Assembly (NCBI GenBank): GCA_024641705.1
Contig: JAHECO010000014.1
Location: 1 to 64,000 of the forward strand
Direction: 5' to 3'
DNA length: 64,000 bases
Origin: Candidatus Kryptoniota bacterium
GTDB taxonomy: Bacteria > Bacteroidota > Ignavibacteria > Kryptoniales > JAKASW01
Below, piece by piece: positions 39,593 to 56,161 of the stretch. Positions within the stretch are counted from its first letter, which is position 1, and every line of letters starts with the position of its first letter. The translations under genes and the position numbers were made by a program. The notes under the pieces were generated by a model that searched no databases, was not told the origin of the DNA, and saw only the letters and a list, made by a program, of their open reading frames with translations.

Positions 39593-40906
39593 CTAAAGGC
39601 CGTACTTCTTGCGTTTTCTCCACAACGTGGCGGGGTCGATGCCGAGGACGTGCGACGCCTCCTCCACGGACGGCGTTTCCCTGATAACCCTCGAGATGTA
39701 TTCCTTCTCAAGCTCTTCGAGTGAAACCAGCCGCTTGCTTTCTTGTCCCCGGATTTCCTCGGGGAGATGGTGGACTTCGATCTTCCTTCCGTGAGCCAGC
39801 AGCACGCAGCGCTCGATAACGTTTTCCAGCTGGCGAACGTTACCCGGCCAGCGGTAGTTGGCAAGGAGGCCGAAAGCATCGGGGTCGATCTCCGGTACGC
39901 TGTCTGCGCCGAATTTGCCCACGAAGTGTTTGATCAGAAGCGGCACGTCGTCCGGTCTGTCTCGGAGCGGAGGAAGCTTTATGGTCACACCGTTAACCCG
40001 GTAGTAAAGGTCGTCGCGAAAGGTCCCTGCCGTGAGCACCTCCCTTAGGTCGCGGTTCGTCGCAGCGATGAACCTGACATCGACCTTGAGTGTCTGGGAA
40101 TCGCCGACTCGCTCGAACTCACGGCTCTGCAGGAAGCGGAGAAGTTTCGCCTGCGTCGTGGTCGGTATCTCGGTGATCTCGTCGAGGAACACCGTTCCCC
40201 CGTCAGCCATTTCGAAGCGTCCCTGCCTGTCCCGCACCGCACCCGTGAAAGCCCCTTTCACATGTCCAAACAGCTCGCTCTCCAGCAGGCTCTCCGACAG
40301 CGCGGCACAGTTCACGGTCATGAACGGGCCGGAGCCCCTGGAGCTCGAGTTATGAATGAACTTTGCAAGGAGCTCCTTGCCGGTCCCGCTTTCACCTTCG
40401 ATGAGAACGCTGATGTTCGTATCGGCGACCTCTCTCGCGAGATTGATGAGCGAGAGTAGTTGCGGGTTTGTCGTTACAATATCCTCCGCTGCTTGGTACT
40501 TGTGGAGCTCCTGCCTGAGATCCTTTAACTGTTTCTGCAAGAGAAAATGATCGTAGACCTTCTGCGCGAAATGCTGGAGCTCCTGGAAATCGAAAGGCTT
40601 CTGGAGGTAATCGTAGGCGCCCTGCTTGATGGCCTGGACGGCAGTGTCCACGGATCCGTGCGCGGTGACGATCACCACGATTGTGTCCGGAGAGTATCTC
40701 TTTACTTCTTCCAGGAGTTTCAGCCCGTCTATCGGGTACATCTTCAGGTCGAAGAATGCGATGTCGAATTGTTTTTTGGAGGCCAGCTTCAAAGCCTCCT
40801 CCGGTTTCGAAGTGGCAGTCACCTCCAGACCGATCGATTCGAGACAAATGGTCATGGTCCGGAGGATATTCTGTTCGTCGTCGACGAGGAGAACGGTTGC
40901 CTTCAT
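39593..40906 (-). CDS. NtrC-type sigma-54-dependent response regulator
   Basis: This 437-residue regulator has a receiver (1-118) with VLLVDDEQN and phosphoacceptor Asp in [13 protein letters not shown]. The AAA+ domain (about 140-370) has Walker [13 protein letters not shown], the sigma-54 contact loop [10 protein letters not shown] and [14 protein letters not shown] Fis-type HTH lies at the end ([20 protein letters not shown]). It activates RNA polymerase carrying sigma-54. Its ATG overlaps the stop of the histidine kinase by four bases, so the two form a coupled pair. Target promoters are unknown; nearby genes are candidates. Confidence 0.93.
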
Positions 40907-43048: not shown

Positions 43049-43423
43049 ATGAGAGAACCCGATAACGGCCTCGTCCTCGGAATCATGACCGACGAAGATG
43101 CAATGTTCGAATTGCTCGGCAAGTTCCTCGGCAAAGAAGGGTACGAGACAAGAAGGGTGTCCTTGGAAGCTTCGGAGACCGAAGACCTCGCTCTAGTCAT
43201 ACTTGCCGCTACGAGAGATCCGGGTCGATCGAGAAGCTGGTTTGAAAATCTGAAGAAGACGAGATCTGCAGTTCTGATTGTGCGGTGTTGCGACGAGGAT
43301 TATTCGGACGCTGATGGAAGTGCCGTGATATTGAAAGAGCGTCCGCTCAACCTCAAGCAGTTGAGCGAGACTATAAGACTGACCCTCGAGAAACGGGGAA
43401 GTCTTGCCTCCTCCATCAGGTGA
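43049..43423 (+). CDS. Degenerate receiver-domain-like protein
   Basis: 124 residues with the outline of a CheY-like receiver: an acidic pair in IMTDEDAMFELLGKFLGKEG, strand ALVILAATRDPG where the phosphoacceptor Asp should follow but Ala is found, and the Lys-Pro-like end AVILKERPLNLKQLSETIRL. Loss of the Asp means it is unlikely to be phosphorylated in the usual way and may act as a phosphorylation-independent adaptor. AGGG lies five to eight bases before ATG 43049. It is divergent from the NtrC-system kinase. Recognition is by pattern only. Confidence 0.6.
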   Translation: MREPDNGLVLGIMTDEDAMFELLGKFLGKEGYETRRVSLEASETEDLALVILAATRDPGRSRSWFENLKKTRSAVLIVRCCDEDYSDADGSAVILKERPLNLKQLSETIRLTLEKRGSLASSIR

Positions 43424-43756: not shown

Positions 43757-43802
43757 CTGCTGCCAGGTGACCTTCACGGAAACCTGGCGGCAGCCTCTTT
43801 TT
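43757..43802 (+). terminator. Rho-independent terminator
   Basis: CTGCTGCCAGGT (43757-43768) pairs with ACCTGGCGGCAG (43782-43793) over 12 pairs including one G-U, followed by CCTCTTTTT. It lies between the receiver-like gene and the cytochrome cluster, so it probably insulates the cluster. The rest of 43424-43963 holds only the 130-bp repeat and no gene. Confidence 0.8.
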
Positions 43803-43963
43803 AAGGGGTGTGGAAACTTTGCTCACAATGTGCCATAAAACCACACGAATGGACACAAACGCCCACAATAAGTTCTTGGTCGCTGCAATTTCACATAATT
43901 TGGGCTGATTTTGCCGACGAATCCACCCGAAGGCGGCACAGTCCTTGAACATAACCTTACAAA

Positions 43964-44272
43964 ATGAAATCTGAAGACCTTTCCAAGTTCGACAAGCTTG
44001 TCGTGAAGAAGTTGCGTGAACTTCTTATCACGCGGCACAAGGTTGTAGTCGATGAAAGCAAGCAACAGGTGCTTGAGGCGGCATCGAAGTTCGACAGCCC
44101 GGATCTCAACGAGCTTGTGTTTGCCCTGCGCCGCATTGAGAAGGGCATCTACGGCCAATGCGTGATCTGCAGACACGATATTCCGGCGGACGTACTCGAG
44201 GCTAACCTGACCGCGAGACTCTGTCCGTCGTGTCAGACCGCGATGCACGAAAAGAGTGACACTTCCAGATGA
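43964..44272 (+). CDS. DksA/TraR-family zinc-finger protein 1
   Basis: 102 residues. A helical N-terminus (KFDKLVVKKLRELLITRHKV) leads to LNELVFALRRIEKGIYGQC and a C4 zinc finger (CVIC ... CPSC). DksA/TraR proteins bind in the RNA polymerase secondary channel and alter transcription with or without ppGpp. The DxxDA tip motif of DksA is not seen. The stop overlaps the ATG of the large cytochrome gene by four bases (ATGA), so it is the first gene of the cytochrome operon, which suggests a regulatory role specific to it. Confidence 0.82.
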   Translation: MKSEDLSKFDKLVVKKLRELLITRHKVVVDESKQQVLEAASKFDSPDLNELVFALRRIEKGIYGQCVICRHDIPADVLEANLTARLCPSCQTAMHEKSDTSR

Positions 44273-46938
44273 AGATTAGGCTGATAACTCTTCTCCCGGC
44301 AATTCTGCTCTTCGCCGCTTCTTACTCCACCTCGTATGCCGGCTCAAACGACGATTGTCTGGCCTGCCATTCCGATTCCACCCTGACGATGCAGAAGGGC
44401 GGGAAGACTGTCAGCCTGTACGTGAGCGGTCATGAATTTGACTCCTCCATCCACGGAGATGCCGGCGTGGGATGCACGGATTGTCACCAGGGATTCAGTG
44501 CGGATGACGTGCCTCATAAACAGACTGCGCCGAACGTCGACTGCAGCCAGTGCCACGATGTCCAGCTCAACGCGCCGCAGGGTGCAAAATATCATATGGC
44601 CCATTCGTCGGTGAAGTGCTGGGACTGTCACGGCACGCACAACATCCAGGCAGCTGCGAACATAGCGGTAGACGGGAAATGCATCTCGTGTCATTCGCGC
44701 GAGAAGTCGTTCCTCACTTCGGCCCACGCTAAGTCGAAGATAGACCACAAGGCATTCACATGTGAATCGTGCCATCAGAAGGCTCACACCGTAAGAAGTG
44801 TCGAGGCGATCAGAGGGACGCAAGTCGATTCGCTCTGCTCCCAGTGTCATCAGGGAGTTGAAGCGGACATAAACCACGGGATACACAAGAAGGCCTTTGC
44901 CGAAGGTGTGATCACTTGCGTGTCCTGTCACACAGCTCACGAGGCGCAGGTTTCCAAAGACGCGATTTCCCAGAACGCTTGTTTCAAATGTCACACGAAT
45001 CCGAAACTCTTTGACGGCGTGAAGTCGGACGGCGGCAAGGAACTGACTTTGCTCGTTCAATCGTACGAGCACAGCGTTCATGCCCGGTCTATAAAGAATA
45101 ACGGGCAAGGAGCCGCCTGCGTCGACTGCCACGGCTCGCACACCATCAAGCCGGCAAGTGATCCGACGTCGCCTGTCAACAGGGCCAACGTCGTGAAGAC
45201 GTGCGGTAAGTGTCATGCCGATGTCGAAAAGAGTTACATGAATTCCTCGCACGGGAAAGCGTTGGCGGCAGGGATCGGTGTTGCTCCGGTTTGCACCGAT
45301 TGCCACAAGGAGCATTCGATCGAATCGGTCGACAACCCCAACTCGCCCGTCAGCAGGGCAAGAGAGCCGGAGATATGTCTCAACTGCCACGTGAACAATA
45401 AAGAGGTGCTTAAGCTCACCGGTGTCTCAGCAGCATTTCTTCTGAGCATCAAGAGCAGCGTGCATATTCGCGCCCTGGAATCGGGGAACCTCAAGGCTGC
45501 GACGTGCAGTGACTGTCACGGTGCCCACGATATGCTTCCCGCCGGCGATCCTGCTTCCAAAGTTTTCAAGGACAACATCCCTTCCACTTGCGGCGCGTCG
45601 GGCTGTCACAAAGGAGTGGAAGACAAATACATGACGGGTATACACGGCAGCGCCCTCGCACAGGGCAACAAGAATGTGCCCGTGTGCACCGACTGTCACG
45701 GAGATCACCAGATCCTTGCTCCAAGCAACCCGAAATCAACGGTCTACGCAACAAATGTTGCACAGTCCTGCTCGAAATGTCACGCCTCTGTCCGACTGAC
45801 TGAGAGGTACGGGATGCCGCCTGATCGCGTCGTCAGCTACATGGATAGCTATCACGGACTCGCAGTAAGGGAGGGGTCTACGACCGCCGCCAACTGCGCG
45901 AGCTGCCACGGTGCCCACGACATACTTCCGTCATCCGATCCCCGTTCGTCGATAAACAAAGCCAATCTTGCAGCGACATGCGGGAAATGCCACAACGGTG
46001 CCGATGTCCGTTTCGCCTCGACCCCGGTGCACGTTCTTCCCGCGTCCGGACAGGAGCCTTTGCTCTACTGGTTGTCTCAAATATATGTAGTCCTGATAAT
46101 TCTCACCATCGGGCTGATGTTCCTTCACAACCTCATAGACTTTATCAGGAAGTCGAGAAGGAAGCTGCAGCTGAGAAGAACGGGAGAGCACAGCGTCCGC
46201 ACAAGCGGAAGACTCTATCTCCGGATGACGCGGAGCGAACGGCTCCAGCACCTGGTGATGCTGGCGAGCTTCCTGACGCTGGTGTTGACCGGTTTCATGC
46301 TGAAGTTTCCGGATTCGTGGTGGGTGAAAGCGATAAGAGAAATTGTCGGTAATGGATTCGCCGATATGCGCGGTGTGATACATAGAATCGCCGGCTCTGC
46401 AATGATAGCGGTGAGCATCTACCACGTGTTTTACCTGATCTTCACCGAGAGGGGCCGCAAATTCTTCAAGGACATGATGCCTAAGATCCAGGACGCGAGA
46501 GATCTGGTCCAGGGAGTGAAGTATAATCTAGGATTGAGCAAGGAGGGACCCAGGTTCGACCGGTTCAGCTACGCCGAGAAAGCTGAATACTTGGCATTGA
46601 TCTGGGGAGTGGTAGTGATGTCCGCAACGGGTCTGCTCCTCTGGTTTACAAACTTCTCCCTCGGTTTCGTGACGAAGCTGGGCCTGGATGCCGCGACTCT
46701 GATTCATTACTACGAGGCTATCCTCGCCAGTCTCGCGATACTCGTATGGCACTTCTATGCGGTGATCTTCAACCCCGACATTTATCCCCTCAATGTTGCC
46801 TGCATCAAGGGTACGTTGAGTGAGGAGGAAATGGAAGAGGAACATCCCCTGGAGCTGGAGAAATTGAAAGAGGCTGAGGAAACTGAAATAGTCGTAGAAA
46901 ATGGGACCGATGATCAGAAACCGAAACACGGAAGATGA
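44269..46938 (+). CDS. 19-haem c-type cytochrome fused to membrane cytochrome b
   Basis: 889 residues with a signal peptide ending near YSTSYAG. About residues 28-590 hold 18 CxxCH motifs plus one CGASGCH (Cx4CH), arranged with repeated SxHxxA...CxDCHGxH units (AANCASCHGAHDILPSSDPR). One helix at about 600-622 follows, then a cytochrome b module (about 655-850) of DUF4405/formate-dehydrogenase-gamma type with probable haem-ligand His in RLQHLVMLASF, VIHRIAGSAM, SIYHVFY and ILVWHFYAV. Its likely role is to oxidise or reduce quinone in the inner membrane and pass electrons directly to its own periplasmic haem wire. The fusion is unusual compared with the separate genes downstream. Confidence 0.88.
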   Translation: MKIRLITLLPAILLFAASYSTSYAGSNDDCLACHSDSTLTMQKGGKTVSLYVSGHEFDSSIHGDAGVGCTDCHQGFSADDVPHKQTAPNVDCSQCHDVQLNAPQGAKYHMAHSSVKCWDCHGTHNIQAAANIAVDGKCISCHSREKSFLTSAHAKSKIDHKAFTCESCHQKAHTVRSVEAIRGTQVDSLCSQCHQGVEADINHGIHKKAFAEGVITCVSCHTAHEAQVSKDAISQNACFKCHTNPKLFDGVKSDGGKELTLLVQSYEHSVHARSIKNNGQGAACVDCHGSHTIKPASDPTSPVNRANVVKTCGKCHADVEKSYMNSSHGKALAAGIGVAPVCTDCHKEHSIESVDNPNSPVSRAREPEICLNCHVNNKEVLKLTGVSAAFLLSIKSSVHIRALESGNLKAATCSDCHGAHDMLPAGDPASKVFKDNIPSTCGASGCHKGVEDKYMTGIHGSALAQGNKNVPVCTDCHGDHQILAPSNPKSTVYATNVAQSCSKCHASVRLTERYGMPPDRVVSYMDSYHGLAVREGSTTAANCASCHGAHDILPSSDPRSSINKANLAATCGKCHNGADVRFASTPVHVLPASGQEPLLYWLSQIYVVLIILTIGLMFLHNLIDFIRKSRRKLQLRRTGEHSVRTSGRLYLRMTRSERLQHLVMLASFLTLVLTGFMLKFPDSWWVKAIREIVGNGFADMRGVIHRIAGSAMIAVSIYHVFYLIFTERGRKFFKDMMPKIQDARDLVQGVKYNLGLSKEGPRFDRFSYAEKAEYLALIWGVVVMSATGLLLWFTNFSLGFVTKLGLDAATLIHYYEAILASLAILVWHFYAVIFNPDIYPLNVACIKGTLSEEEMEEEHPLELEKLKEAEETEIVVENGTDDQKPKHGR

Positions 46939-47029
46939 TCTTGTGCAGGCGTTGCGGCAAGTAGGGCTGCTGCTGCAGGACGGATCCTCACCGGTACCCG
47001 AAGTCCAGGCATGATTCGAAAGGGAAGTC

Positions 47030-47731
47030 ATGGACAATAAAATACCAAGGTTTTCGCGGAGCTGGCGCGTCCAGCACATGCTCCTCATGGTGAGCGTGCT
47101 TCTGCTGATGATCTCCGGATTTTCTCTGAAGTACTCGGAGACCTTCTGGGGGAAGGCGCTGATTTTTCTGGAGGGCGGGTTCCAGGCTAGAGGCTCATTG
47201 CACCGATTGTCCGCCGTCCTCCTTTTCATAACGGCCGTCTACCATTTGCTCTATATATCCCTGACAAAAGAAGGGAGGAGCGAGTTCAGGGGACTCCTGC
47301 CACGGAAAAGCGATTTCGTTGATTTGAAAAACGGCATCCTTTATGACCTGTTGCGGAAATCCGAGAAGCCGGCTTTCGGGCGATATTCCTACCGCGAAAA
47401 GATACAGTACTGGGCGTTCTTCATTTTCATCCTGTTGATGCTCTTGTCGGGTATCATATTGTGGTTTCATGATTACTTCTTCGCCTTCCTTCCGAAATGG
47501 GCGTTCGACGTCTCGTTCATGCTCCATGGCGGGACCGCCATTCTCGTGATCCTCTTTCTTCTTCTCTGGCATCTGTATATCGTTCACCTCTCGCCCGGGA
47601 ATTTTCCCGCGAACTCATCGTTCTGGCACGGCTATGTCTCTGAGAAGTGGCTGAAAGAAAACCATTTGCTCGAATATGAGGAGATGAAGAAGAAGGGAAT
47701 GACGACGACGAAGGACGAACGGGAGGCTTGA
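47030..47731 (+). CDS. Membrane cytochrome b subunit 1
   Basis: 233 residues with four membrane helices. It is homologous to the C-terminal module of the preceding protein: RVQHMLLMVSVLLLMISGF, LHRLSAVLLFITAVYHLLY, FGRYSYREKIQYWAFF and ILFLLLWHLYIVHLSPG. The His residues in the first, second and fourth helices probably bind two b haems. GGGAAG precedes ATG 47030, and the next cytochrome gene starts two bases after its stop. It is probably the quinone-reactive partner of the 9-haem protein. Confidence 0.85.
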   Translation: MDNKIPRFSRSWRVQHMLLMVSVLLLMISGFSLKYSETFWGKALIFLEGGFQARGSLHRLSAVLLFITAVYHLLYISLTKEGRSEFRGLLPRKSDFVDLKNGILYDLLRKSEKPAFGRYSYREKIQYWAFFIFILLMLLSGIILWFHDYFFAFLPKWAFDVSFMLHGGTAILVILFLLLWHLYIVHLSPGNFPANSSFWHGYVSEKWLKENHLLEYEEMKKKGMTTTKDEREA

Positions 47732-47732
47732 T

Positions 47733-48764
47733 ATGACGGCGCTCTTGACTATTCTACTTGCGTTCTTCCAATTGGCCCCATCGTCGCAGAATACACGATG
47801 TTTCCTTTGTCATGGGAAAGAGAGTTTTGGAGTAACGGAACAGGGACAATTCCGCTCTCTCTTTGTCTCTCCGAGGGAATTTGCGGCTTCAATTCACGGT
47901 AAGTTCACCTGCGTTCAGTGCCACGTCGACGTCAAGGTGATCCCGCATTTCATCAGGCCGCAGAAGATAAGTTGTCTCCAGTGTCACTTCGAAGGGAACA
48001 CGGCCGGCGCTCCGGTAAAATGGATGCCGGAGAGGTACAAGGAGAGCGTTCATGCCAAGGCCCTGGAGGCAGGAAACCCGAACGCCCCTGATTGTGAGAC
48101 TTGCCATACTACCCACTATGTGAAGAGCCCCACCGATTCTACGTCGACTACTTATAGGAAGAACGTTCCCGAGCTCTGTGGGAGATGCCACAAGAAGCAA
48201 TTTGAAGCCTACAGTAAATCTATACATTACAAAGCACTTGAAAGTGGAGTGCTCGGGGCGGCTGTTTGTACCGATTGCCATCATGAACATGATGTTTTGC
48301 CGCCGAGTGATCCCAGGTCGTCCCTCAGTCCTGAGGGAGTTGTTCGCACTTGCGCGAAATGTCATTCGGATACGCTGTTGATGGAGAAGTCCGACGTACC
48401 CGTCCAGCAGCCCCAGGCCTACAGTGAAAGCTTTCATGGCATAGCCCTGGAAAACGGGATGGTCAAGGCCGCGAACTGCACGTCGTGCCATGGTCACCAC
48501 GACATCTTGCCCGCCAGCAATCCGTCTTCTCCGATCAATCCGAAGAATCTTCCGAAGACATGCGGCAAGTGTCATCCGAACGCGGATCAGAACGTCGCCA
48601 AGGGGAAAGTCCATATCATTCCCGGTGAGAAAAGTGCCGGCGTCGTTTATTATGTGTACACTTTCTTCAAATGGTTTACGCTCATAGTCCTCGTTTTCCT
48701 GTTCGTGCATATAATTCTTGATATCTCGGGGTACGTAAGGCGGAAGTATGCGAGACACGAGTAG
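47733..48764 (+). CDS. 9-haem c-type cytochrome with C-terminal membrane anchor
   Basis: 343 residues: short N-terminal leader (MTALLTILLAFFQLAPSS), nine CxxCH motifs (CFLCH first, CGKCH last) and a membrane helix at about 305-325 (FFKWFTLIVLVFLFVHIILD). Its repeats (AANCTSCHGHHDILPASNPS) are clearly related to those of the 19-haem fusion. It overlaps the following cytochrome b gene by 17 bases. The pair thus reproduces, as two proteins, the domain order of the fused 889-residue protein. Confidence 0.9.
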   Translation: MTALLTILLAFFQLAPSSQNTRCFLCHGKESFGVTEQGQFRSLFVSPREFAASIHGKFTCVQCHVDVKVIPHFIRPQKISCLQCHFEGNTAGAPVKWMPERYKESVHAKALEAGNPNAPDCETCHTTHYVKSPTDSTSTTYRKNVPELCGRCHKKQFEAYSKSIHYKALESGVLGAAVCTDCHHEHDVLPPSDPRSSLSPEGVVRTCAKCHSDTLLMEKSDVPVQQPQAYSESFHGIALENGMVKAANCTSCHGHHDILPASNPSSPINPKNLPKTCGKCHPNADQNVAKGKVHIIPGEKSAGVVYYVYTFFKWFTLIVLVFLFVHIILDISGYVRRKYARHE

Positions 48765-49644
48765 AGACGACAAGAAGCTAGACGACCTGACCGAAGCCGT
48801 GATCCGTGAAGTCGAAGCGGACGAGAACGTCAAGCTTGACGAGGAGTTCAGGTCCGGCCTGAAAGAGGAGCTGGTCCAGAAAGTCAGGCAGCATCTCGAG
48901 GCGAAGCGCAAGCTTGAAGAGATAAGGAAAAATAAGGAAGCGAAAGCCAGGGAAGAGAATTTCCCGCGCTTTGGCCTGAATTTCAGGCTGCAACACCTGA
49001 CGCTGGCGATCGGGGTGATAATCCTGATTATCACGGGCCTGCCGATAAAATTCCACGATTCGGTCGTGTCGAAGTTGTTTTTCGAAATAACGGGCGGAAT
49101 TACGGTATCGAGAATTATCCACAGGATCGGAGCGACGCTTCTTATTATAGTTTCGATCTGGCATATACTTTACATAACCGCATCGAAGACCGGCAGGAAC
49201 GACTTCAAGCAACTCATCCCGACACCGAAGGATCTCAAAGATTTTCTGCAGAACATGAAGTATCTCCTCGGTTTGTCGAAAGAAAAACCGAGATACGGCA
49301 GATTCTCCTACATCGAAAAATTTGACTACTGGGCGGTCTACTGGGGAATGGTGATAATGATCCTATCGGGCCTTCTCCTATGGTTCAACAATTTCTTCCT
49401 CGGCCTTGTCCCGAAGTTTGTCCTCGATGTGGCAACGGAGGTGCACTCGGACGAGGCGATGCTTGCCACGCTTGCCATTGTGGTGTGGCACTGGTACAAC
49501 GTACACTTCAACCCGGAGGTGTTCCCCTTCAATGCGACTATTTTCACGGGCAAGATCTCCAAAGAGAAAATGATCAAGGATCATCCTTTGGAATATGAAC
49601 AGATGAAATCGAGATCCCGGGAGATGCATGCGGACGAGAAGTGA
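48748..49644 (+). CDS. Membrane cytochrome b subunit 2
   Basis: 298 residues. A charged cytoplasmic N-terminus of about 75 residues with coiled-coil character (LEAKRKLEEIRKNKEAKARE) precedes four helices homologous to the other two b modules: LQHLTLAIGVIILIITGLPI, IIHRIGATLLIIVSIWHILY, YGRFSYIEKFDYWAVYWGMV and ATLAIVVWHWYNVHFNPEVF. A start nearer the b domain is possible. It overlaps its neighbours on both sides (17 bases upstream, GTGA downstream), which indicates tight co-translation with the 9- and 18-haem cytochromes. Confidence 0.85.
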   Translation: MRDTSRDDKKLDDLTEAVIREVEADENVKLDEEFRSGLKEELVQKVRQHLEAKRKLEEIRKNKEAKAREENFPRFGLNFRLQHLTLAIGVIILIITGLPIKFHDSVVSKLFFEITGGITVSRIIHRIGATLLIIVSIWHILYITASKTGRNDFKQLIPTPKDLKDFLQNMKYLLGLSKEKPRYGRFSYIEKFDYWAVYWGMVIMILSGLLLWFNNFFLGLVPKFVLDVATEVHSDEAMLATLAIVVWHWYNVHFNPEVFPFNATIFTGKISKEKMIKDHPLEYEQMKSRSREMHADEK

Positions 49645-51590
49645 GAATGAAGAAATTTAGAAGAACGATTGCCATTGCGTTACCGGTATTCGCCATATAC
49701 GGCTTTTTTCTCTTTCTCAGGGCTTCGGATGATCCGAAGTTCTGCGCTTCCTGTCATTACATGGAGCAGTATTACAACAACTGGCTCAACTCATCGCACA
49801 ACCAGGTCTCGTGCGTGAAATGTCATTACGCGCCGGGTGCGGGAAACTACATAAAGGGAAAGATAAGGCTGGCGTCGGAAATCCTGCGCTACTATATAGG
49901 AGCGTACTCGGCCGAGGTCACCTCGAAAATCAATGACGGCGCTTGCCTGCAATGCCACAAGAAACAGGATTTCTTCTCGAAAGACATAACGTTCGACAAA
50001 GGCAAGATCACATTCAATCACGCGGATCATTTCAACAGCTCGAGGGTCAATTTTACATTCAAATGCCAGACATGTCATGCGGAGCTTGTCCAGGGACAGC
50101 ACGGCGGAGTCTCGACGCGGATATGTATCCTGTGCCATTTCGCAGGTTCGGATATGCGCGGTGGGCCGGTAGGCGGATGCGGCGTATGTCACGGTCCTCC
50201 GAAGAACGAGATCTACGTCTGGAACACACCGTTCAATCACTCGAAGTACCTGAAGAGCGGGGTCAACTGCCAGACTTGCCACCTGCACGTAACCGCCGGA
50301 ACGGGAAGCGTCACGAGGGACAAATGCCTGGAATGTCATGTCAGTGTTCCAGACACGTTTCCCGATATGAAGAGCATGCACGAGGAGCATGTGACGAAAG
50401 ACGATATCAAATGCTCCAAATGCCACGGGGTAATTACGCACGGGAAAATACAGATGTATGATGTATTCACTCCCGACTGCCAGCAATGCCACGGCAACCG
50501 GCACAGCATACAGGAACAGGTGTATTCCGGGTCGGGTGGAAAGAATATACCTGTGATTCCGGATCCGATGTTCCTGGCGGACGTAACGTGTGAAGGCTGC
50601 CATAGCTCGATGGGACCGGGAATTGCCGGAGTCGCCGCTACCGGTATGAGCGATGTTGCGATGACCGGACGGATGCCTGCAGCCTCGTTGTGCAGCACCT
50701 GCCACGGCGAAGCGTTCGACAAGCTCCTCGGTATGTGGCAGGGCAATGTGAAATCCAGGATGCAGGAGCTTGAAGCCGAGAAATGGAAAAACTTCCTCTT
50801 CAGCGGGAAGATGGATTCTGCCAACAGCGACATCGAGCTTGTGAAGAAAGATGGGAGTCTGGGTGCTCATAACAATAGGTACGTCAACCTTCTTCTCGAT
50901 GAGGCTGCAAAAGAGTTGAAAGTCGTGAGTAAGAAACCGGACGTCGAGACGCTCTATGAACGTAACTCGGCGTGCCTGAGCTGTCATTTCGGGATTGAGA
51001 ATGTGAAAGTTGAAGTGAAGGACCAGACCTTCCCGCACGGGCCGCATCTCTTCTCGCAGAGATGTGTGAATTGTCACGTAGACACTTCACCCTCATCTCC
51101 GGAGCACGGCAAACTGACGGCGAAAGGCGGTTCCTGCAGCGACTGCCATCATCAGGCCAAGAATCCGAAATGCGAAACCTGTCATCCGCAGCAGGCGGGT
51201 TTTTACGCGGGGACATTTCTCGCGGCTTCGCCCGATTCCATGTCGAGCTCGGGCATCGCGTGTTCGGATTGTCACCTCGCTGCCGGTAACTATCCGTCCA
51301 TTCCGACAGCCGATGTTTGCGCTAGTTGCCATGACGCGGGTACGATGAAGGCGCTTCAGGCGGAGCAGACGGAGGTAAAGACGGCTATTTCTGAGTGGGA
51401 TCGGATGTTTCCCAAAATGGTGGCGAGCTACGGGACGGATCTCAAAGGGGCCGGCGTGGATAGTCTCCGTGCCATTGAGCGCGACGTGGAGAACTTCAAA
51501 AAAGAGGGCTCGTATGGAGCCCACAATTCCCCTTATGCGAAGTTGCTCGTTCGAAGGATTGGTAATTTTCTCGGAAATTTTAAATATTAG
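49641..51590 (+). CDS. 18-haem NapC/NirT-like c-type cytochrome
   Basis: 649 residues from GTG 49641 (ATG 49647 is an alternative). The uncleaved N-terminal helix (TIAIALPVFAIYGFFLFL) and FCASCHYMEQYYNNWLNSSH plus CVKCHYAPG are typical of the NapC/NirT quinol-dehydrogenase start. Eighteen CxxCH motifs follow to residue about 590. Two related segments (KDGSLGAHNNRYVNLLL and KEGSYGAHNSPYAKLLV) each follow a haem-free helical stretch, as in decahaem or tetrahaem repeats where the region is duplicated. It is probably an inner-membrane-anchored periplasmic electron carrier working with the cytochrome b proteins. Confidence 0.88.
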   Translation: MRMKKFRRTIAIALPVFAIYGFFLFLRASDDPKFCASCHYMEQYYNNWLNSSHNQVSCVKCHYAPGAGNYIKGKIRLASEILRYYIGAYSAEVTSKINDGACLQCHKKQDFFSKDITFDKGKITFNHADHFNSSRVNFTFKCQTCHAELVQGQHGGVSTRICILCHFAGSDMRGGPVGGCGVCHGPPKNEIYVWNTPFNHSKYLKSGVNCQTCHLHVTAGTGSVTRDKCLECHVSVPDTFPDMKSMHEEHVTKDDIKCSKCHGVITHGKIQMYDVFTPDCQQCHGNRHSIQEQVYSGSGGKNIPVIPDPMFLADVTCEGCHSSMGPGIAGVAATGMSDVAMTGRMPAASLCSTCHGEAFDKLLGMWQGNVKSRMQELEAEKWKNFLFSGKMDSANSDIELVKKDGSLGAHNNRYVNLLLDEAAKELKVVSKKPDVETLYERNSACLSCHFGIENVKVEVKDQTFPHGPHLFSQRCVNCHVDTSPSSPEHGKLTAKGGSCSDCHHQAKNPKCETCHPQQAGFYAGTFLAASPDSMSSSGIACSDCHLAAGNYPSIPTADVCASCHDAGTMKALQAEQTEVKTAISEWDRMFPKMVASYGTDLKGAGVDSLRAIERDVENFKKEGSYGAHNSPYAKLLVRRIGNFLGNFKY

Positions 51591-51663
51591 TGTTGCAAGG
51601 GATGCGAAAACGTTTGAAGAGTCAGGAAAACGGGATAACGGTCAGCTATCCGAAGGGAATAAT

Positions 51664-52032
51664 ATGAGAACCAGGGATTCGATTGATGACAAGGCGAAAG
51701 CCCAGTTTGAATCGCGGTTGAGAAGAAGGATGGGTGTGCTGCTCCAGATGATGTACCAGCATCCACATGAGCTTGTCGATCTCGAAAGCGGCGAGAAATA
51801 CATCTGTACCGTTTGCGACATGGAGTTCAAGCGGTGTGAAGTCGAACCGGACTACAGGTGCGAGCCCGCGCGGAAAGAAGAGACTGAGCTGAAGGAAATT
51901 GAGCTCGCACTGCGGCGGCTGCGTAACGGGACTTTCGGCTATTGTATGAGCTGTTCCAGTTTCATCGGCATCAAAGCGCTCGAAGACTCGCCGACCCGCA
52001 CCTATTGCGATGGATGTGCGAAGAAAAATTGA
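51664..52032 (+). CDS. DksA/TraR-family zinc-finger protein 2
   Basis: 122 residues from ATG 51664 (GAAGGGAA upstream); a longer open frame reaching into the preceding gene is not credible. A CTVC segment (Cys about 49/52) precedes the family region KEIELALRRLRNGTFGYCMS with a C4 finger (CMSC ... CDGC). It is a second RNA-polymerase-binding-type protein in the cytochrome block, placed before the second half that holds the barrel protein. Whether it regulates these genes is not known. Confidence 0.75.
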   Translation: MRTRDSIDDKAKAQFESRLRRRMGVLLQMMYQHPHELVDLESGEKYICTVCDMEFKRCEVEPDYRCEPARKEETELKEIELALRRLRNGTFGYCMSCSSFIGIKALEDSPTRTYCDGCAKKN

Positions 52033-52089
52033 CCGGCATACTACTCTGTCGGACTATAGTTGCCAAATAAAAATGGAGGTATGTAGTAA

Positions 52090-52641
52090 ATGAAAACCCT
52101 AATGACAATAGCAATGGCGATCGCTCTGACGTCCGCCGTTTCGTTGGCGGCAGCGCCCACCCACGATTACGTCGGCGTCAGCGTCTGCAAGATGTGCCAT
52201 CAGACTGCAAAGAACGGCGAACAATTCCAGAAATGGCAGGCCAGCAAGCACGCTCAGGCATATAAAACCCTCCTGACACCCGAAGCCGCCAAGATAGCGG
52301 AGGCGAAGGGGATCAAGGGGAAACCGTCCGAAGCGAAGGAGTGCCTCGAGTGCCACGAGACCGGCTATGACGTCGCTGCCGCGAACCTCGGTCCCAAGTT
52401 CAATAAGGAAGACGGTGTCCAGTGCGAAACGTGCCACGGTGCAGGCAAGGACTACATGAAGATGAACATCATGAAAGACCAGAAACTGGCAGCTGCGAAC
52501 GGCTTGGTTCTTCTCTCCGTGAAGGACGGCAGCGCGCAGAAGTTCTGCGAAACCTGCCACAACAAGAAGAGCCCGACATTCAAAGGCTTCGACTTTGCCA
52601 AAATGTGGGCCCAGATCGCGCATCCGGTTCCTAGTAAGTAG
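52090..52641 (+). CDS. Periplasmic tetrahaem cytochrome (c554-like)
   Basis: 183 residues with a clean signal peptide (MKTLMTIAMAIALTSAVSLA, AA) and four CxxCH motifs (CKMCH, CLECH, two CETCH). KWQASKHAQAYKTLL and GVQCETCHGAGKDYMKM are typical of the cytochrome c554/multihaem family. TGGAGG lies just upstream of ATG 52090. As the only small soluble cytochrome of the cluster, it is a good candidate for the shuttle between inner-membrane cytochromes and the outer-membrane complex. Confidence 0.9.
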   Translation: MKTLMTIAMAIALTSAVSLAAAPTHDYVGVSVCKMCHQTAKNGEQFQKWQASKHAQAYKTLLTPEAAKIAEAKGIKGKPSEAKECLECHETGYDVAAANLGPKFNKEDGVQCETCHGAGKDYMKMNIMKDQKLAAANGLVLLSVKDGSAQKFCETCHNKKSPTFKGFDFAKMWAQIAHPVPSK

Positions 52642-52851
52642 GTCTGAATCGAACGACTGTCTGCAAAGGCAGCTTTCGGACATGTTTAATTTCATCTCCA
52701 TAAAGGAAGGTGGGTTGTGAAAGGTATCCCGGAAATGGCGTCAGAAAGCCGAACTGCAAGTCGGCGCCTTGAGCGCGGTGCCGACATATTCTATCACAAG
52801 AATGACACGGTGGCTTCGGCACCGCGGTCCTGTAGAGAAGACAGGAAGCAT

Positions 52852-54195
52852 ATGCCGGGCCGTCGGATTCGCGGTTTCCCGATGATGTTTCCGGGATTAC
52901 CTGTCATCCTTTTCCTCATCCTGGCAGTTTCACTCGGGCCGGAAGAGGCGCGCGCCCAGATGGTGAGCGGAAGGTTCATGACAAGCTTTTACTCATTTCA
53001 ACAGTATGATACGTCGAACACCGCCAAGATGAGCTTGAGGGGGTTCGAGGCAATGCAGCTTAATTTCGGTGCAGGGAACTACCAGCTGCATACCTACCTC
53101 CTTGCGACCAACGACTTCATAACGAAGCAGCCGAACGATCCTTTGCTGCGAGCGGCCAATCTGTATTTTGAGGCGAGGAAGATCGGCAATATCGTTAACC
53201 TCAAGCTCGGGAGACAGCCCGTCTTTTCACGCGTCGGGGTTTCCTCTTTCGACGGCCTCAGTGCCGACGCGAAATTCCTCGACGACAAGATCTCTCTCGT
53301 GGCTTTCGGCGGTGCGCTCCCTCCGATGAACGAGAAACTGGAATTGAACTCCAACCTCAAGGACAACATGCTCTACGGGGCGCAGGCATACTACTCTCCC
53401 TTCGACAACTTCCGTATCGGAGGCGCCTACGTCAACAAGAGCTTCAAGCCGCCGAGCTATTACACTTACAGACTAACAGAATTGCATACGAACCCCGGTA
53501 TCCAGGACAGCATCCTGATTGATCCGTCCGCCATCGCGAACCAGTTCGTGTCGGGGGACCTCTTCTACTACACCGACAGGATCTCCGGATACTTCAGGCT
53601 CGATTACGATCTGAATTTCTACCAAATCAACAGGACGGAAGTCTCGTTCAGGTATTCTCCTTTCCGCTCCTTCTCTGCGAATGTCGGGTATTTTCACCGC
53701 GATTCGCGCCTTCCTTACAACTCTATATTCTCTGTGTTCGATCACAGCGGCACTGACGAATTTGACCTCGGCGCGAACTACATGTTCACCGAGGACATCA
53801 GCGCCTTCGGATCGTACAGCAGGATATTCTACACGGGAGATAATTCGAACCAGTTCACTATAGGCACGAACGTCTACCTCTTCTCTGTGAGCTTCTCCCA
53901 CAACGACGGTTTTGCGGGAAATCTGAACGGCGTAAATGCCCAGTTCATCTATCCGTTCATGGATCGGAAATTCGTGCTGATAGCATCTGCATCGGCAACG
54001 AATTACAAGATATTGCAGCAACTCTCATCCTCGAACAGGCTGTACAGCGGTTCGCTGGGACTGACTTACCGCCCCATAAACCTGCTGTCGATCAGCCTGC
54101 AGGGACAATACTACCAGGACCCCGTGTATAAGAACGACTTCCGTGGGTATCTGCAGGTGAGCTACTACTTTTTCAAAAACTTCAGTTCGAACTGA
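52852..54195 (+). CDS. Outer-membrane beta-barrel (porin-like) protein
   Basis: 447 residues from ATG 52852, chosen because the signal peptide MPGRRIRGFPMMFPGLPVIL ending EEARAQ begins there; an in-frame GTG at 52717 adds 45 non-leader residues. The mature part has alternating amphipathic strands with many Tyr/Phe and short turns (KLGRQPVFSRVGVSSFDGLS, YGAQAYYSPFDNFRIGGAYV, DLGANYMFTEDISAFGSYS) and ends in an aromatic strand (VSYYFFKN), as expected of a 16- to 20-strand barrel. No haem site is present. It lies between two secreted cytochromes, so it may be the sheath of an outer-membrane electron conduit. Confidence 0.75.
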   Translation: MPGRRIRGFPMMFPGLPVILFLILAVSLGPEEARAQMVSGRFMTSFYSFQQYDTSNTAKMSLRGFEAMQLNFGAGNYQLHTYLLATNDFITKQPNDPLLRAANLYFEARKIGNIVNLKLGRQPVFSRVGVSSFDGLSADAKFLDDKISLVAFGGALPPMNEKLELNSNLKDNMLYGAQAYYSPFDNFRIGGAYVNKSFKPPSYYTYRLTELHTNPGIQDSILIDPSAIANQFVSGDLFYYTDRISGYFRLDYDLNFYQINRTEVSFRYSPFRSFSANVGYFHRDSRLPYNSIFSVFDHSGTDEFDLGANYMFTEDISAFGSYSRIFYTGDNSNQFTIGTNVYLFSVSFSHNDGFAGNLNGVNAQFIYPFMDRKFVLIASASATNYKILQQLSSSNRLYSGSLGLTYRPINLLSISLQGQYYQDPVYKNDFRGYLQVSYYFFKNFSSN

Positions 54196-54206
54196 CGGAG
54201 GCGCAG

Positions 54207-55469
54207 ATGAAAACGATAAGACTCTTCGGATTTGTCGGCTTGGCGGCGCTTCTGTCGATCTCGACGCTCTTCGCGAGCAAGGATGCCCCGAAGCCCGATA
54301 ACTCGAAACTCATAAAATTTTCGCATACGAAACACATCAACGACGTCGGGGCGGCGTGCGCGGACTGCCATACCGCCGTCACCACAAGCACGGACGTCAC
54401 AGAGTACCTGATCCCGACTATGCAGACGTGCTACACCTGTCATGATCAGTCGTCGACCAAGTGCGAATTCTGTCACACTTCTGCGGACAGCACAACCTAC
54501 CAGAAGCTTACTCAAATTCCCGGTCCCGTATATTTCTCGCATAAACAACACGCAGGTACACTGAAGCTGAAGTGCGAGACCTGCCATCAGGGAATCGACA
54601 AGGTCGCCTATGCGGAGGATGCTCCCAACAATGGGCTTCCGAAGATGGAGCAGTGCGTCGTGTGCCACGGGCAGGGAGAGACAAATTTCAGCACTGAGAA
54701 CGTGTCCCACCCGATCACCGCTGCACCGGGCGCGTGTGAAAATTGCCACAGAGACCTTGTGAACCTGGTGCCTGAGTCCCACAAGGAAGTGGGATGGATG
54801 AAAGAGCACAAGAACTTCGTCAACATGAGCGGTCCGCAGAACGATTGCAAATCGTGTCATACTCCGGCCACATGTCAGGAATGCCACGATGCGTCGAATC
54901 TGGCGAAGGACCTGACGCCGGGTCAGTTGTACGTACCGTCGACACCGTCGCTGTCACCCCTCACGACGCATAAGAACCTGACCATCAATAAGGTTCATCC
55001 CGACAACTTCCGGTTCACGCATTCCATTGCCGCGAAGGGACGCGAAAGCACGTGCTACACTTGTCACGACGAGCGCACGTTCTGCGTGCAATGTCATAAT
55101 TCCGAGGCCAACGGAGCTTTGATAAAGCCCGTCTGGCACGACGGCGGCGGGTTCGTGACCAACGGCGTCGGAAGCGGAGGCGGAAGACATGCGCAGTATG
55201 CCAGGAAGGATATCGAGAGCTGTGCAAGCTGCCACGACGTACAGGGCGGCGATCCGGTCTGCATAACCTGTCATACCGATCCTGACGGGGTTCAGCACGA
55301 CGACCCGCGCACTCACCCCGCGATGTTTATGCATGACGTTCACGGGAGCTGGCACACCGATCTCGGTGCGGTCTGTTATACATGTCATACCGATCCCAAC
55401 GCCCATCCGGGCGGCAAGCCGGGCATCGGCTTCTGCGGTTATTGTCACGGCAGCAATCCGGGAGACTGA
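54207..55469 (+). CDS. 14-haem periplasmic c-type cytochrome
   Basis: 420 residues with a signal peptide (MKTIRLFGFVGLAALLSIST, LFAS) and 14 CxxCH motifs spread over the whole length (CADCH first, CGYCH last). The intervening His pattern (IKFSHTKHINDVGAACADCH, VYFSHKQHAGTLKLKCETCH) provides distal ligands as in cytochrome c3/c7 types. It lies 11 bases after the barrel gene stop and 2 bases before the next cytochrome, so the three are expressed together. It would fit the periplasmic side or interior of a barrel-cytochrome complex. Confidence 0.88.
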   Translation: MKTIRLFGFVGLAALLSISTLFASKDAPKPDNSKLIKFSHTKHINDVGAACADCHTAVTTSTDVTEYLIPTMQTCYTCHDQSSTKCEFCHTSADSTTYQKLTQIPGPVYFSHKQHAGTLKLKCETCHQGIDKVAYAEDAPNNGLPKMEQCVVCHGQGETNFSTENVSHPITAAPGACENCHRDLVNLVPESHKEVGWMKEHKNFVNMSGPQNDCKSCHTPATCQECHDASNLAKDLTPGQLYVPSTPSLSPLTTHKNLTINKVHPDNFRFTHSIAAKGRESTCYTCHDERTFCVQCHNSEANGALIKPVWHDGGGFVTNGVGSGGGRHAQYARKDIESCASCHDVQGGDPVCITCHTDPDGVQHDDPRTHPAMFMHDVHGSWHTDLGAVCYTCHTDPNAHPGGKPGIGFCGYCHGSNPGD

Positions 55470-55471
55470 AG

Positions 55472-56161
55472 ATGAAAACATACATTGGATTAGTTTTGAT
55501 AGTTGCTGCTGGTCTCGTCTTCGCGTCATGCAGCAAATTACAGAGCGATAATGTGCTCGCCACAGCCAACTGCAGCTCCTGCCACGGCAGCGTGATGAGC
55601 CCGGCACCCCCGCCCGATCCGGCGGGCAATACAAGTACGTCGACTCCCACCGTTGGCGCGCACCAGGTACACCTCAACGGCAGCGCGTTCGCGTCGAAGG
55701 TGGCGTGCTCTTCGTGCCACGTGGTGCCGCAGTCTGCGGGGCCGGGAATCCATCCCGACGGTCCCGGAAGCGGAAACATCGTGATGTTCGCAGGTGTTGC
55801 TCTTACTGAGACAAACACGCCAGGTACGCGCTTCTACGACAGCTCTCTGCCAACCGTGGTACCGCAGCCCACCTTCAATACCCAGACGCTGAAGTGCCAG
55901 AATACTTATTGCCACGGCAACTTCAAAGGTGGAAACAACTTCAGCCCGACCTGGACTGTGGTGAATTCCAGTCAGGATTCATGCGGAAGCTGTCACGGTC
56001 TTCCTCCTGACGATGCGACCCATCAGGGAAAGGGGATAACACTGCAAACCTGCTATTACTGCCACACTCCGATGATCGGAGCAAACGGCGTCATACTGGA
56101 TGATTCGCTGCACGTCAACGGGTCGCTTGAGTTGTATGGAAAGACCGTAACATCGTGGTAA
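55472..56161 (+). CDS. Pentahaem lipoprotein cytochrome with CxxCH and Cx4CH sites
   Basis: 229 residues from ATG 55472; an upstream in-frame extension to 55382 overlaps the previous gene. The lipoprotein leader MKTYIGLVLIVAAGLVFASC puts Cys20 as the acylated residue. Four CxxCH motifs plus CQNTYCH (Cx4CH) are seen. The Cx4CH next to a CxxCH and the NG/SGSCHG context resemble outer-surface cytochromes of metal-reducing Geobacter. Acylation would place it on the outer membrane, so it may be the cell-surface terminus of the chain. A strong terminator follows. Confidence 0.82.
   Translation: MKTYIGLVLIVAAGLVFASCSKLQSDNVLATANCSSCHGSVMSPAPPPDPAGNTSTSTPTVGAHQVHLNGSAFASKVACSSCHVVPQSAGPGIHPDGPGSGNIVMFAGVALTETNTPGTRFYDSSLPTVVPQPTFNTQTLKCQNTYCHGNFKGGNNFSPTWTVVNSSQDSCGSCHGLPPDDATHQGKGITLQTCYYCHTPMIGANGVILDDSLHVNGSLELYGKTVTSW

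What the first reader, a model, noticed from the sequence alone, without database searches (positions are those of the whole stretch)
43964..56161. Large multihaem cytochrome block with about 69 c-type haem sites
Six cytochromes (19, 9, 18, 4, 14 and 5 predicted haems), three cytochrome b proteins or modules, a barrel protein and two zinc-finger regulators are contiguous on one strand with many overlaps. The set spans the inner membrane, periplasm and outer membrane. Its gene order does not match the Mtr or Geobacter conduits I know.
Basis: partly seen in the sequence, partly recalled or inferred. Interest (0 to 1): 0.75.

Follow-up and report, generated by a model that had tools for sequence, protein, structure and literature searches.

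The report
Ignavibacterial porin-cytochrome electron conduit
This is a gene cluster for carrying respiratory electrons from the inner membrane through the outer membrane to something outside the cell (most likely iron minerals); its outer half is a known type found throughout the class Ignavibacteria, while its inner half is an unusually large and exchangeable set of modules.

Summary
In detail: six multihaem cytochromes with 67 CXXCH plus two CX4CH sites (69), three b-type cytochrome modules, a barrel and two DksA-like proteins lie head to tail. The class is Ignavibacteria: one relative genome is exactly the published size of Melioribacter roseus and carries the same barrel.

The best reading is a porin-cytochrome (Pcc) conduit fed by quinol oxidases. 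The outer cassette, c4 - 22-strand barrel - 14-haem - lipoprotein cytochrome, is conserved across the class and matches the pcc cluster published for Ignavibacterium album (IALB_1840-1837). That part is not new.

What is less ordinary is the inner half. A CbcL-like 19-haem/cytochrome b fusion sits beside a b-C9-b-D18 cassette present in 5 of 13 same-genus genomes. In one genome pair A19 differs (70% identity) while the genes on both sides stay 86-94% identical (dksA2 73%), which indicates in-place replacement. Elsewhere in the class the same conduit is preceded by ImcH-like or Rieske/cytochrome b/11-haem modules. I call it a new variant of a known kind: one fixed outer-membrane conduit with interchangeable quinone interfaces. 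Direction (Fe(III) reduction) is inferred from M. roseus physiology, not proven; the genome also holds a Cyc2-like gene.

The parts
39593..40906 (-). NtrC-type response regulator (receiver, sigma-54 activation domain, Fis HTH); likely regulator
   Evidence: Pfam PF00158 236 bits, PF00072, PF02954
40903..42771 (-). membrane histidine kinase (HAMP, PAS, HisKA), partner of the response regulator
   Evidence: Pfam; a 616-634 aa neighbour in the same relative place and orientation in most same-genus loci fetched
43757..43802 (+). conserved hairpin followed by a T run, upstream of the cluster
   Evidence: alignment of 9 same-genus upstream regions
43808..43846 (+). strongly conserved block GTGTGGAAA.TTTGCTCAC.ATGTGCCATAAAACCACA, possible activator site; no other copy within 2 mismatches in the genome
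43934..43949 (+). CGGCACA-N4-TTGAW, sigma-54-like promoter (TTGA in place of TTGC), conserved in 8 genomes
   Evidence: identification is inference
43964..44272 (+). DksA/TraR-like C4 protein (dksA1)
   Evidence: PF01258 17.4 bits, below cut-off; conserved next to A19 in the genus
44269..46938 (+). A19: 19-haem c domain fused to C-terminal cytochrome b561-like domain; CbcL-like quinol oxidase
47030..47731 (+). b2: cytochrome b561/FdnI-like protein
   Evidence: PF01292 58.6 bits; aligned His shared with the b domain of A19 and with b3
47733..48764 (+). C9: nonahaem cytochrome with C-terminal membrane helix; resembles the haem part of A19
   Evidence: 9 CXXCH; 39% identity to A19 over about 200 aa
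48748..49644 (+). b3: cytochrome b561/FdnI-like protein, b partner of C9
   Evidence: PF01292 56.8 bits
49641..51590 (+). D18: 18-haem NapC/NrfH-type membrane-anchored cytochrome with invariant CxxCHxM at haem 1
   Evidence: PF03264, TIGR03153; alignment
51658..52032 (+). DksA-like protein (dksA2)
   Evidence: NF033459 40.5 bits, below cut-off
52090..52641 (+). c4: tetrahaem c554-family periplasmic cytochrome
   Evidence: PF13435 71.6 bits; c554 match 1bvb
52852..54195 (+). BAR: 22-stranded outer-membrane barrel without plug, porin of the conduit
   Evidence: AF2 model pLDDT 86.5; barrel match to 22-strand receptors Z about 20
54207..55469 (+). E14: 14-haem periplasmic cytochrome presumed to sit in the barrel
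   Evidence: 14 CXXCH; conserved partner of BAR
55472..56161 (+). F5: 5-haem outer-membrane lipoprotein cytochrome (one CX4CH), outer end of the conduit
   Evidence: PF09698 28.7 bits; lipobox Cys20

Best explanation
The block encodes one extracellular electron transfer chain. Quinol is oxidised at the inner membrane by two alternative sets: A19 (CbcL-like, 19 c haems plus a b561 domain), and the b2-C9-b3-D18 cassette (a split CbcL-like C9/b3 unit plus a NapC/NrfH-type 18-haem protein). Electrons pass to the small tetrahaem c4, then to the 14-haem E14 held in the 22-strand barrel, and out to the lipoprotein cytochrome F5, which reduces an insoluble or large acceptor, most likely Fe(III) oxides. 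A neighbouring histidine kinase/NtrC-type regulator probably controls the operon through a sigma-54-like promoter. Shown by sequence: haem sites, families, predicted barrel fold, co-conservation, module replacement. Inferred: order of transfer, quinol as donor, outward direction, acceptor, regulation.
For: Haem and domain content; barrel predicted with 22 strands and no plug, within the 18-22 range published for Pcc porins (PMC4245776); BAR in 69 of 100 relatives, almost always one copy, followed by E in every locus with BAR identified and room to see it, usually preceded by c4 and followed by F; same gene order and the same 400-aa/14-haem partner as IALB_1840-1837; M. roseus (contig 3,300,414 bp = published size) carries A16-c4-BAR-E14-F and can use Fe(III) (PMC3534657); no NrfA-type CXXCK, no RuBisCO. 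D18 keeps CxxCHxM and 15 conserved distal-candidate His; A19 keeps 19 of 19 proximal His and its b-domain His.
Against: No experiment. Two of the four c4 haems lack a conserved distal His, so c4 might be catalytic and not only a shuttle. E14 could not be modelled beyond about residue 160-200, so its insertion in the barrel is unproven. Transfer direction is not encoded in these families; CbcL/MtrH/MtoC homologues occur in Fe(II) oxidisers too (PMC6295460), and the genome has a Cyc2-like locus.
Confidence: 0.82

Rival explanations
1. The same conduit runs inward: electrons from Fe(II), an electrode or a partner cell enter through F5-E14-BAR and reduce quinone or an oxidase.
For: CbcL/MtrH/MtoC family is found in Fe(II) oxidisers; two haem-copper oxidases and a Cyc2-like plus Qrc/ACIII-like locus in the genome.
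Against: Class members with the cassette include the Fe(III)-using organotroph M. roseus; no RuBisCO (other CO2-fixation routes not searched); the Cyc2-like gene would already serve inward flow.
Confidence: 0.12
2. A periplasmic respiratory system for a soluble acceptor, with c4 (c554-like, incompletely bis-His) as the terminal enzyme and the barrel only a substrate porin.
For: Two c4 haems lack a conserved distal His; c4 is usually linked to the barrel or the quinol module.
Against: Does not explain the conserved surface lipoprotein F or the barrel/14-haem pairing; no CXXCK site; the only NrfA-family match over the cut-off is 27.5 bits on a 179-aa protein.
Confidence: 0.05

Closest known systems
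pcc cluster IALB_1840-1837 of Ignavibacterium album JCM 16511 (Shi et al. 2014, PMC4245776)
   Same: Order periplasmic cytochrome - porin - 400-aa 14-haem cytochrome - outer-membrane cytochrome with an atypical haem motif; same class
   Different: The published cluster is discussed without an inner-membrane quinol module; here A19 and the b2-C9-b3-D18 cassette plus two DksA-like genes lie directly upstream
Geobacter sulfurreducens OmbB-OmaB-OmcB Pcc complex
   Same: Porin, periplasmic and outer-membrane multihaem cytochromes from one operon
   Different: 8- and 12-haem partners there, 14 and 5 here; the I. album porin and periplasmic cytochrome fell outside all five published groups (PMC4245776)
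CbcL/MtrH/MtoC inner-membrane cytochromes
   Same: A19: N-terminal c haems fused to a HydC/FdnI-type cytochrome b; 3-23 haems are reported for the family (PMC6295460)
   Different: 19 haems against 9 in G. sulfurreducens CbcL; encoded beside a split copy (C9 + b3)
NrfH/NapC/CymA quinol dehydrogenases
   Same: D18 N-terminus: one helix, CxxCHxM at haem 1
   Different: About 14 further haems fused to the same chain
MtrCAB / PioAB
   Same: Works like it: barrel plus multihaem wire across the outer membrane
   Different: Barrel does not match TIGR03509 and has 22 predicted strands, not 26

Membership tests
Porin-cytochrome (Pcc) conduit | outer-membrane barrel of about 18-22 strands encoded beside multihaem cytochromes | tested here: met
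   22 strands predicted, pLDDT 86.5; neighbours c4, E14, F5
Porin-cytochrome (Pcc) conduit | periplasmic multihaem cytochrome with signal peptide as partner of the barrel | tested here: met
   E14, 14 CXXCH, N-terminal signal-like helix; adjacent to BAR across the class
Porin-cytochrome (Pcc) conduit | outer-membrane lipoprotein cytochrome | tested here: met
   F5 lipobox Cys20 and 5 haem sites; a simple pattern found a lipobox in 34 of 47 relatives
Porin-cytochrome (Pcc) conduit | sequence homology to Geobacter OmbB/ExtB/ExtE/ExtI porins | not tested
   Those sequences are not held here; literature reports OmbB-like porins in Ignavibacteria (PMC7399161)
[quoted passage not shown]
   needs purified complex or mutants
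MtrB/PioB-type conduit | match to TIGR03509 (OMP_MtrB_PioB) | tested here: not met
   no match for BAR nor in this genome; none over cut-off in 100 class genomes
CbcL/MtrH/MtoC | N-terminal c haems fused to C-terminal cytochrome b domain | tested here: met
   A19: 19 haem sites, PF01292 57.4 bits at 652-836, conserved His
ImcH | three N-terminal helices, one CX3CH, 5-9 CX2CH | tested here: not met
   D18 has one predicted helix and 18 CXXCH; an ImcH-like protein (3 helices, 6+1 haems) lies elsewhere, G000 C63
NapC/NrfH quinol dehydrogenase | Cytochrom_NNT domain with CxxCHxM at haem 1 | tested here: met
   PF03264 39.1 bits over cut-off 24.1, M41 invariant in 19 sequences; TIGR03153 is below its equivalog cut-off
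NrfA nitrite reductase | CXXCK active-site haem | tested here: not met
   no CXXCK in any block protein

The most novel reading that the evidence does not exclude
Across Ignavibacteria one fixed outer-membrane wire (c4-barrel-E-F) is plugged into exchangeable quinone modules of different redox span: CbcL-like, split CbcL-like plus NapC-type, ImcH-like, or a Rieske/cytochrome b complex with an 11-haem subunit. Modules are replaced in place by recombination, so that energy yield per electron sent outside is tuned (in some families by a Q-cycle) without changing the wire.
Probability: 0.35. Interest if true: 0.65.

Novelty: new variant of a known kind. Interest (0 to 1): 0.45.

Why it matters
Outer-membrane conduits are known mostly from Geobacter and Shewanella, where the quinol oxidase usually lies apart from the conduit. 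Here both halves are one locus, and natural genomes with and without a given quinone module beside a nearly identical conduit offer a ready comparison of which inner-membrane enzyme sets the redox range and energy yield of extracellular respiration. The class is widespread in sediments, groundwater and anode biofilms.

Tried and rejected
Nitrite/sulfite or other soluble-acceptor pathway: no CXXCK, no convincing NrfA. MtrB/PioB barrel: no match. Autotrophic Fe(II) oxidiser by the Calvin cycle: no RuBisCO; other CO2-fixation routes not searched. PDB sequence searches with the barrel, single or profile, found no relative (only an irrelevant E 1.2 hit); structural matches were generic barrels, best 22-strand receptors without their plug, and MtrB's absence from those rows proves nothing. 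E14 folded poorly beyond about residue 160, so I could not check whether it fits the barrel. Homology to Geobacter porins could not be tested because no Geobacter sequence was available. The search for related loci with the barrel returned only two same-genus MAG contigs. A canonical sigma-54 site upstream was sought: a -24-like TGGCAC match points away from the cluster, and the conserved CGGCACA-N4-TTGAW departs from consensus, so regulation stays inference. Sigma-70 promoter hits were at chance level.

Full report
Observation. The coordinates and counts hold. The + strand from 43964 to 56161 encodes dksA1, A19, b2, C9, b3, D18, dksA2, c4, BAR, E14 and F5. There are 67 CXXCH and two CX4CH sites, 69 in all; shuffled proteins give about zero, and only three CXXCH occur in the rest of the window in six frames. 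Apart from Cys845 of A19 and the lipobox Cys of F5, every cysteine of the six cytochromes belongs to a haem site, which leaves no room for iron-sulfur centres.

Parts. A19 is a 19-haem protein with a C-terminal cytochrome b561-like domain (PF01292), the layout of CbcL/MtrH/MtoC. b2 and b3 are free-standing proteins of the same b family, sharing aligned His with the b domain of A19. C9 resembles part of the haem domain of A19 (39% over about 200 aa), so C9+b3 look like a split CbcL-like unit. D18 begins with a NapC/NrfH domain (PF03264) including CxxCHxM at haem 1, invariant in 19 sequences. c4 is in the c554 family and has only two conserved distal-candidate His plus a mostly conserved Met for four haems. 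BAR has no Pfam or NCBIfam match, but AlphaFold2 with 49 sequences gives a confident barrel with 22 long strands, whose closest folds by VIA-align are 22-strand receptor barrels without their plug. E14 has 14 haems; its N-terminal half is c7-like and its profile matches the multihaem cytochrome 3ov0 and PpcA-type structures. F5 is a lipoprotein with a CxxxxCH...CXXCH motif (PF09698).

Where it comes from. The window is contig C38 of a 4.6 Mb draft genome. M. roseus carries A16-c4-BAR-E14(401 aa)-F, and its authors report Fe(III), arsenate and nitrite as acceptors.

Conservation. BAR is found in 69 of 100 relatives, one copy in nearly all, and in 395 genomes of the phylum it is essentially confined to this class (57 class genomes, two weak outsiders). 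Among loci examined where the neighbours could be seen, BAR is followed by an 11-, 12- or 14-haem E and then by F; c4 usually precedes it directly. Two genomes (L127, L128) have c4-BAR-E14(400 aa)-F with no other cytochrome gene nearby. This is the layout of the published I. album pcc cluster: IALB_1840 periplasmic cytochrome, 1839 porin, 1838 with 400 aa and 14 haems, 1837 outer-membrane cytochrome with an atypical motif (PMC4245776). Later papers report Pcc clusters in M. roseus and in anode-biofilm Ignavibacteria (PMC7399161, PMC6137239). The outer half is therefore known.

The inner half varies. In the genus the core is dksA1-A19-dksA2-c4-BAR-E-F, and the b2-C9-b3-D18 cassette sits between A19 and dksA2 in 5 of 13 genomes; D18 was absent in the cassette-less genomes that were searched for it (which covered nine of the thirteen). 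The sister family has A17-b2-C9-b3-D18-D17-c4 and then, in most members, a Rieske protein, a cytochrome b and an 11-haem cytochrome before BAR. Other families have ImcH-like plus Rieske/cytochrome b/11-haem modules, split A plus D17, or nothing. In the window's own genome the Rieske/cytochrome b/11-haem/c4-like set is on contig C75 and an ImcH-like protein on C63.

Replacement in place. Between G002 (cassette) and G007 (none) protein identity is dksA1 90, A19 70, dksA2 73, c4 94, BAR 86, E 94, F 90%; DNA identity falls inside A19 and rises again in dksA2. A19 data reject G002+G007 as sisters (p 1e-4), while c4+BAR+E data reject the cassette carriers as one clade (p 5e-10). These groups were chosen after seeing the trees, so the p values flatter the result; the identity profile does not depend on that choice. 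Which half is native to each species was not tested.

Mechanism. Quinol oxidation by A19 and by the C9/b3/D18 set, transfer to c4, then E14 in the barrel, then F5 to an external acceptor. Haem content, families, predicted fold and co-conservation are shown; the order of carriers, quinol as donor, direction and acceptor are inferred. Outward flow to Fe(III) is favoured by M. roseus and by the absence of RuBisCO (other CO2-fixation routes not searched); inward flow cannot be excluded, because CbcL relatives occur in Fe(II) oxidisers and this genus also carries a Cyc2-like gene.

Regulation (inference). A histidine kinase and an NtrC-type regulator lie divergently upstream. Nine upstream regions share a hairpin with a T run, a block of about 38 bp, and a CGGCACA-N4-TTGAW element about 15-30 bp before dksA1 in the eight that reach that far. 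The element resembles a sigma-54 promoter with TTGA in place of TTGC.

Verdict. A real, class-conserved Pcc-type conduit with an enlarged, exchangeable inner-membrane section: a new variant of a known kind.

Noticed in passing
L111:2212-6900 (G000 contig C69:34211-38899): A 470-aa protein with one N-terminal CXXCH and a Cyc2-like start (PSYARQTGMACSACHYNFPQLTPFGRLFKL), followed by a monohaem cytochrome c, a QrcA-like pentahaem protein and a QrcB-like molybdopterin protein: a candidate Cyc2 plus Qrc/ACIII-like Fe(II) oxidation locus. No Pfam or NCBIfam model matches the first protein; the Cyc2 resemblance is from memory. Strong relatives in 11 of 13 same-genus genomes, only weak ones outside.
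   Followed up: partly
L106:6081-7238 (G000 contig C41): A second, shorter protein (386 aa) with a single N-terminal CXXCH and barrel-like sequence, beside a 5-haem protein.
   Followed up: no
L103:4275-7840 (G000 contig C75): Rieske protein, cytochrome b/b6, 11-haem cytochrome and a c4 paralogue: a bc-type complex with an 11-haem c subunit. In several other families of the class the same set lies directly upstream of the barrel cassette, suggesting Q-cycle-coupled extracellular electron transfer.
   Followed up: partly
L109:2413-4931 (G000 contig C57): Adjacent 20-haem and 10-haem cytochromes of unknown role.
   Followed up: no
L110:142-4061 (G000 contig C19): A 1040-aa protein that matches QrcB and QrcC in one chain, next to a QrcA-like pentahaem protein; possible ACIII/Qrc-type complex.
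   Followed up: no
L068 (G071:C32) and L078 (G098:C3): At the position of F the loci carry an 874-aa protein with 28+1 haem sites and an 875-aa F-like protein with 18+3 sites: enlarged outer-membrane cytochromes.
   Followed up: no
window 43049-43423: A small protein (124 aa) between the histidine kinase and the cluster; ORFs of similar size lie at this place in several relatives. Looks like a degenerate receiver domain; not tested.
   Followed up: no
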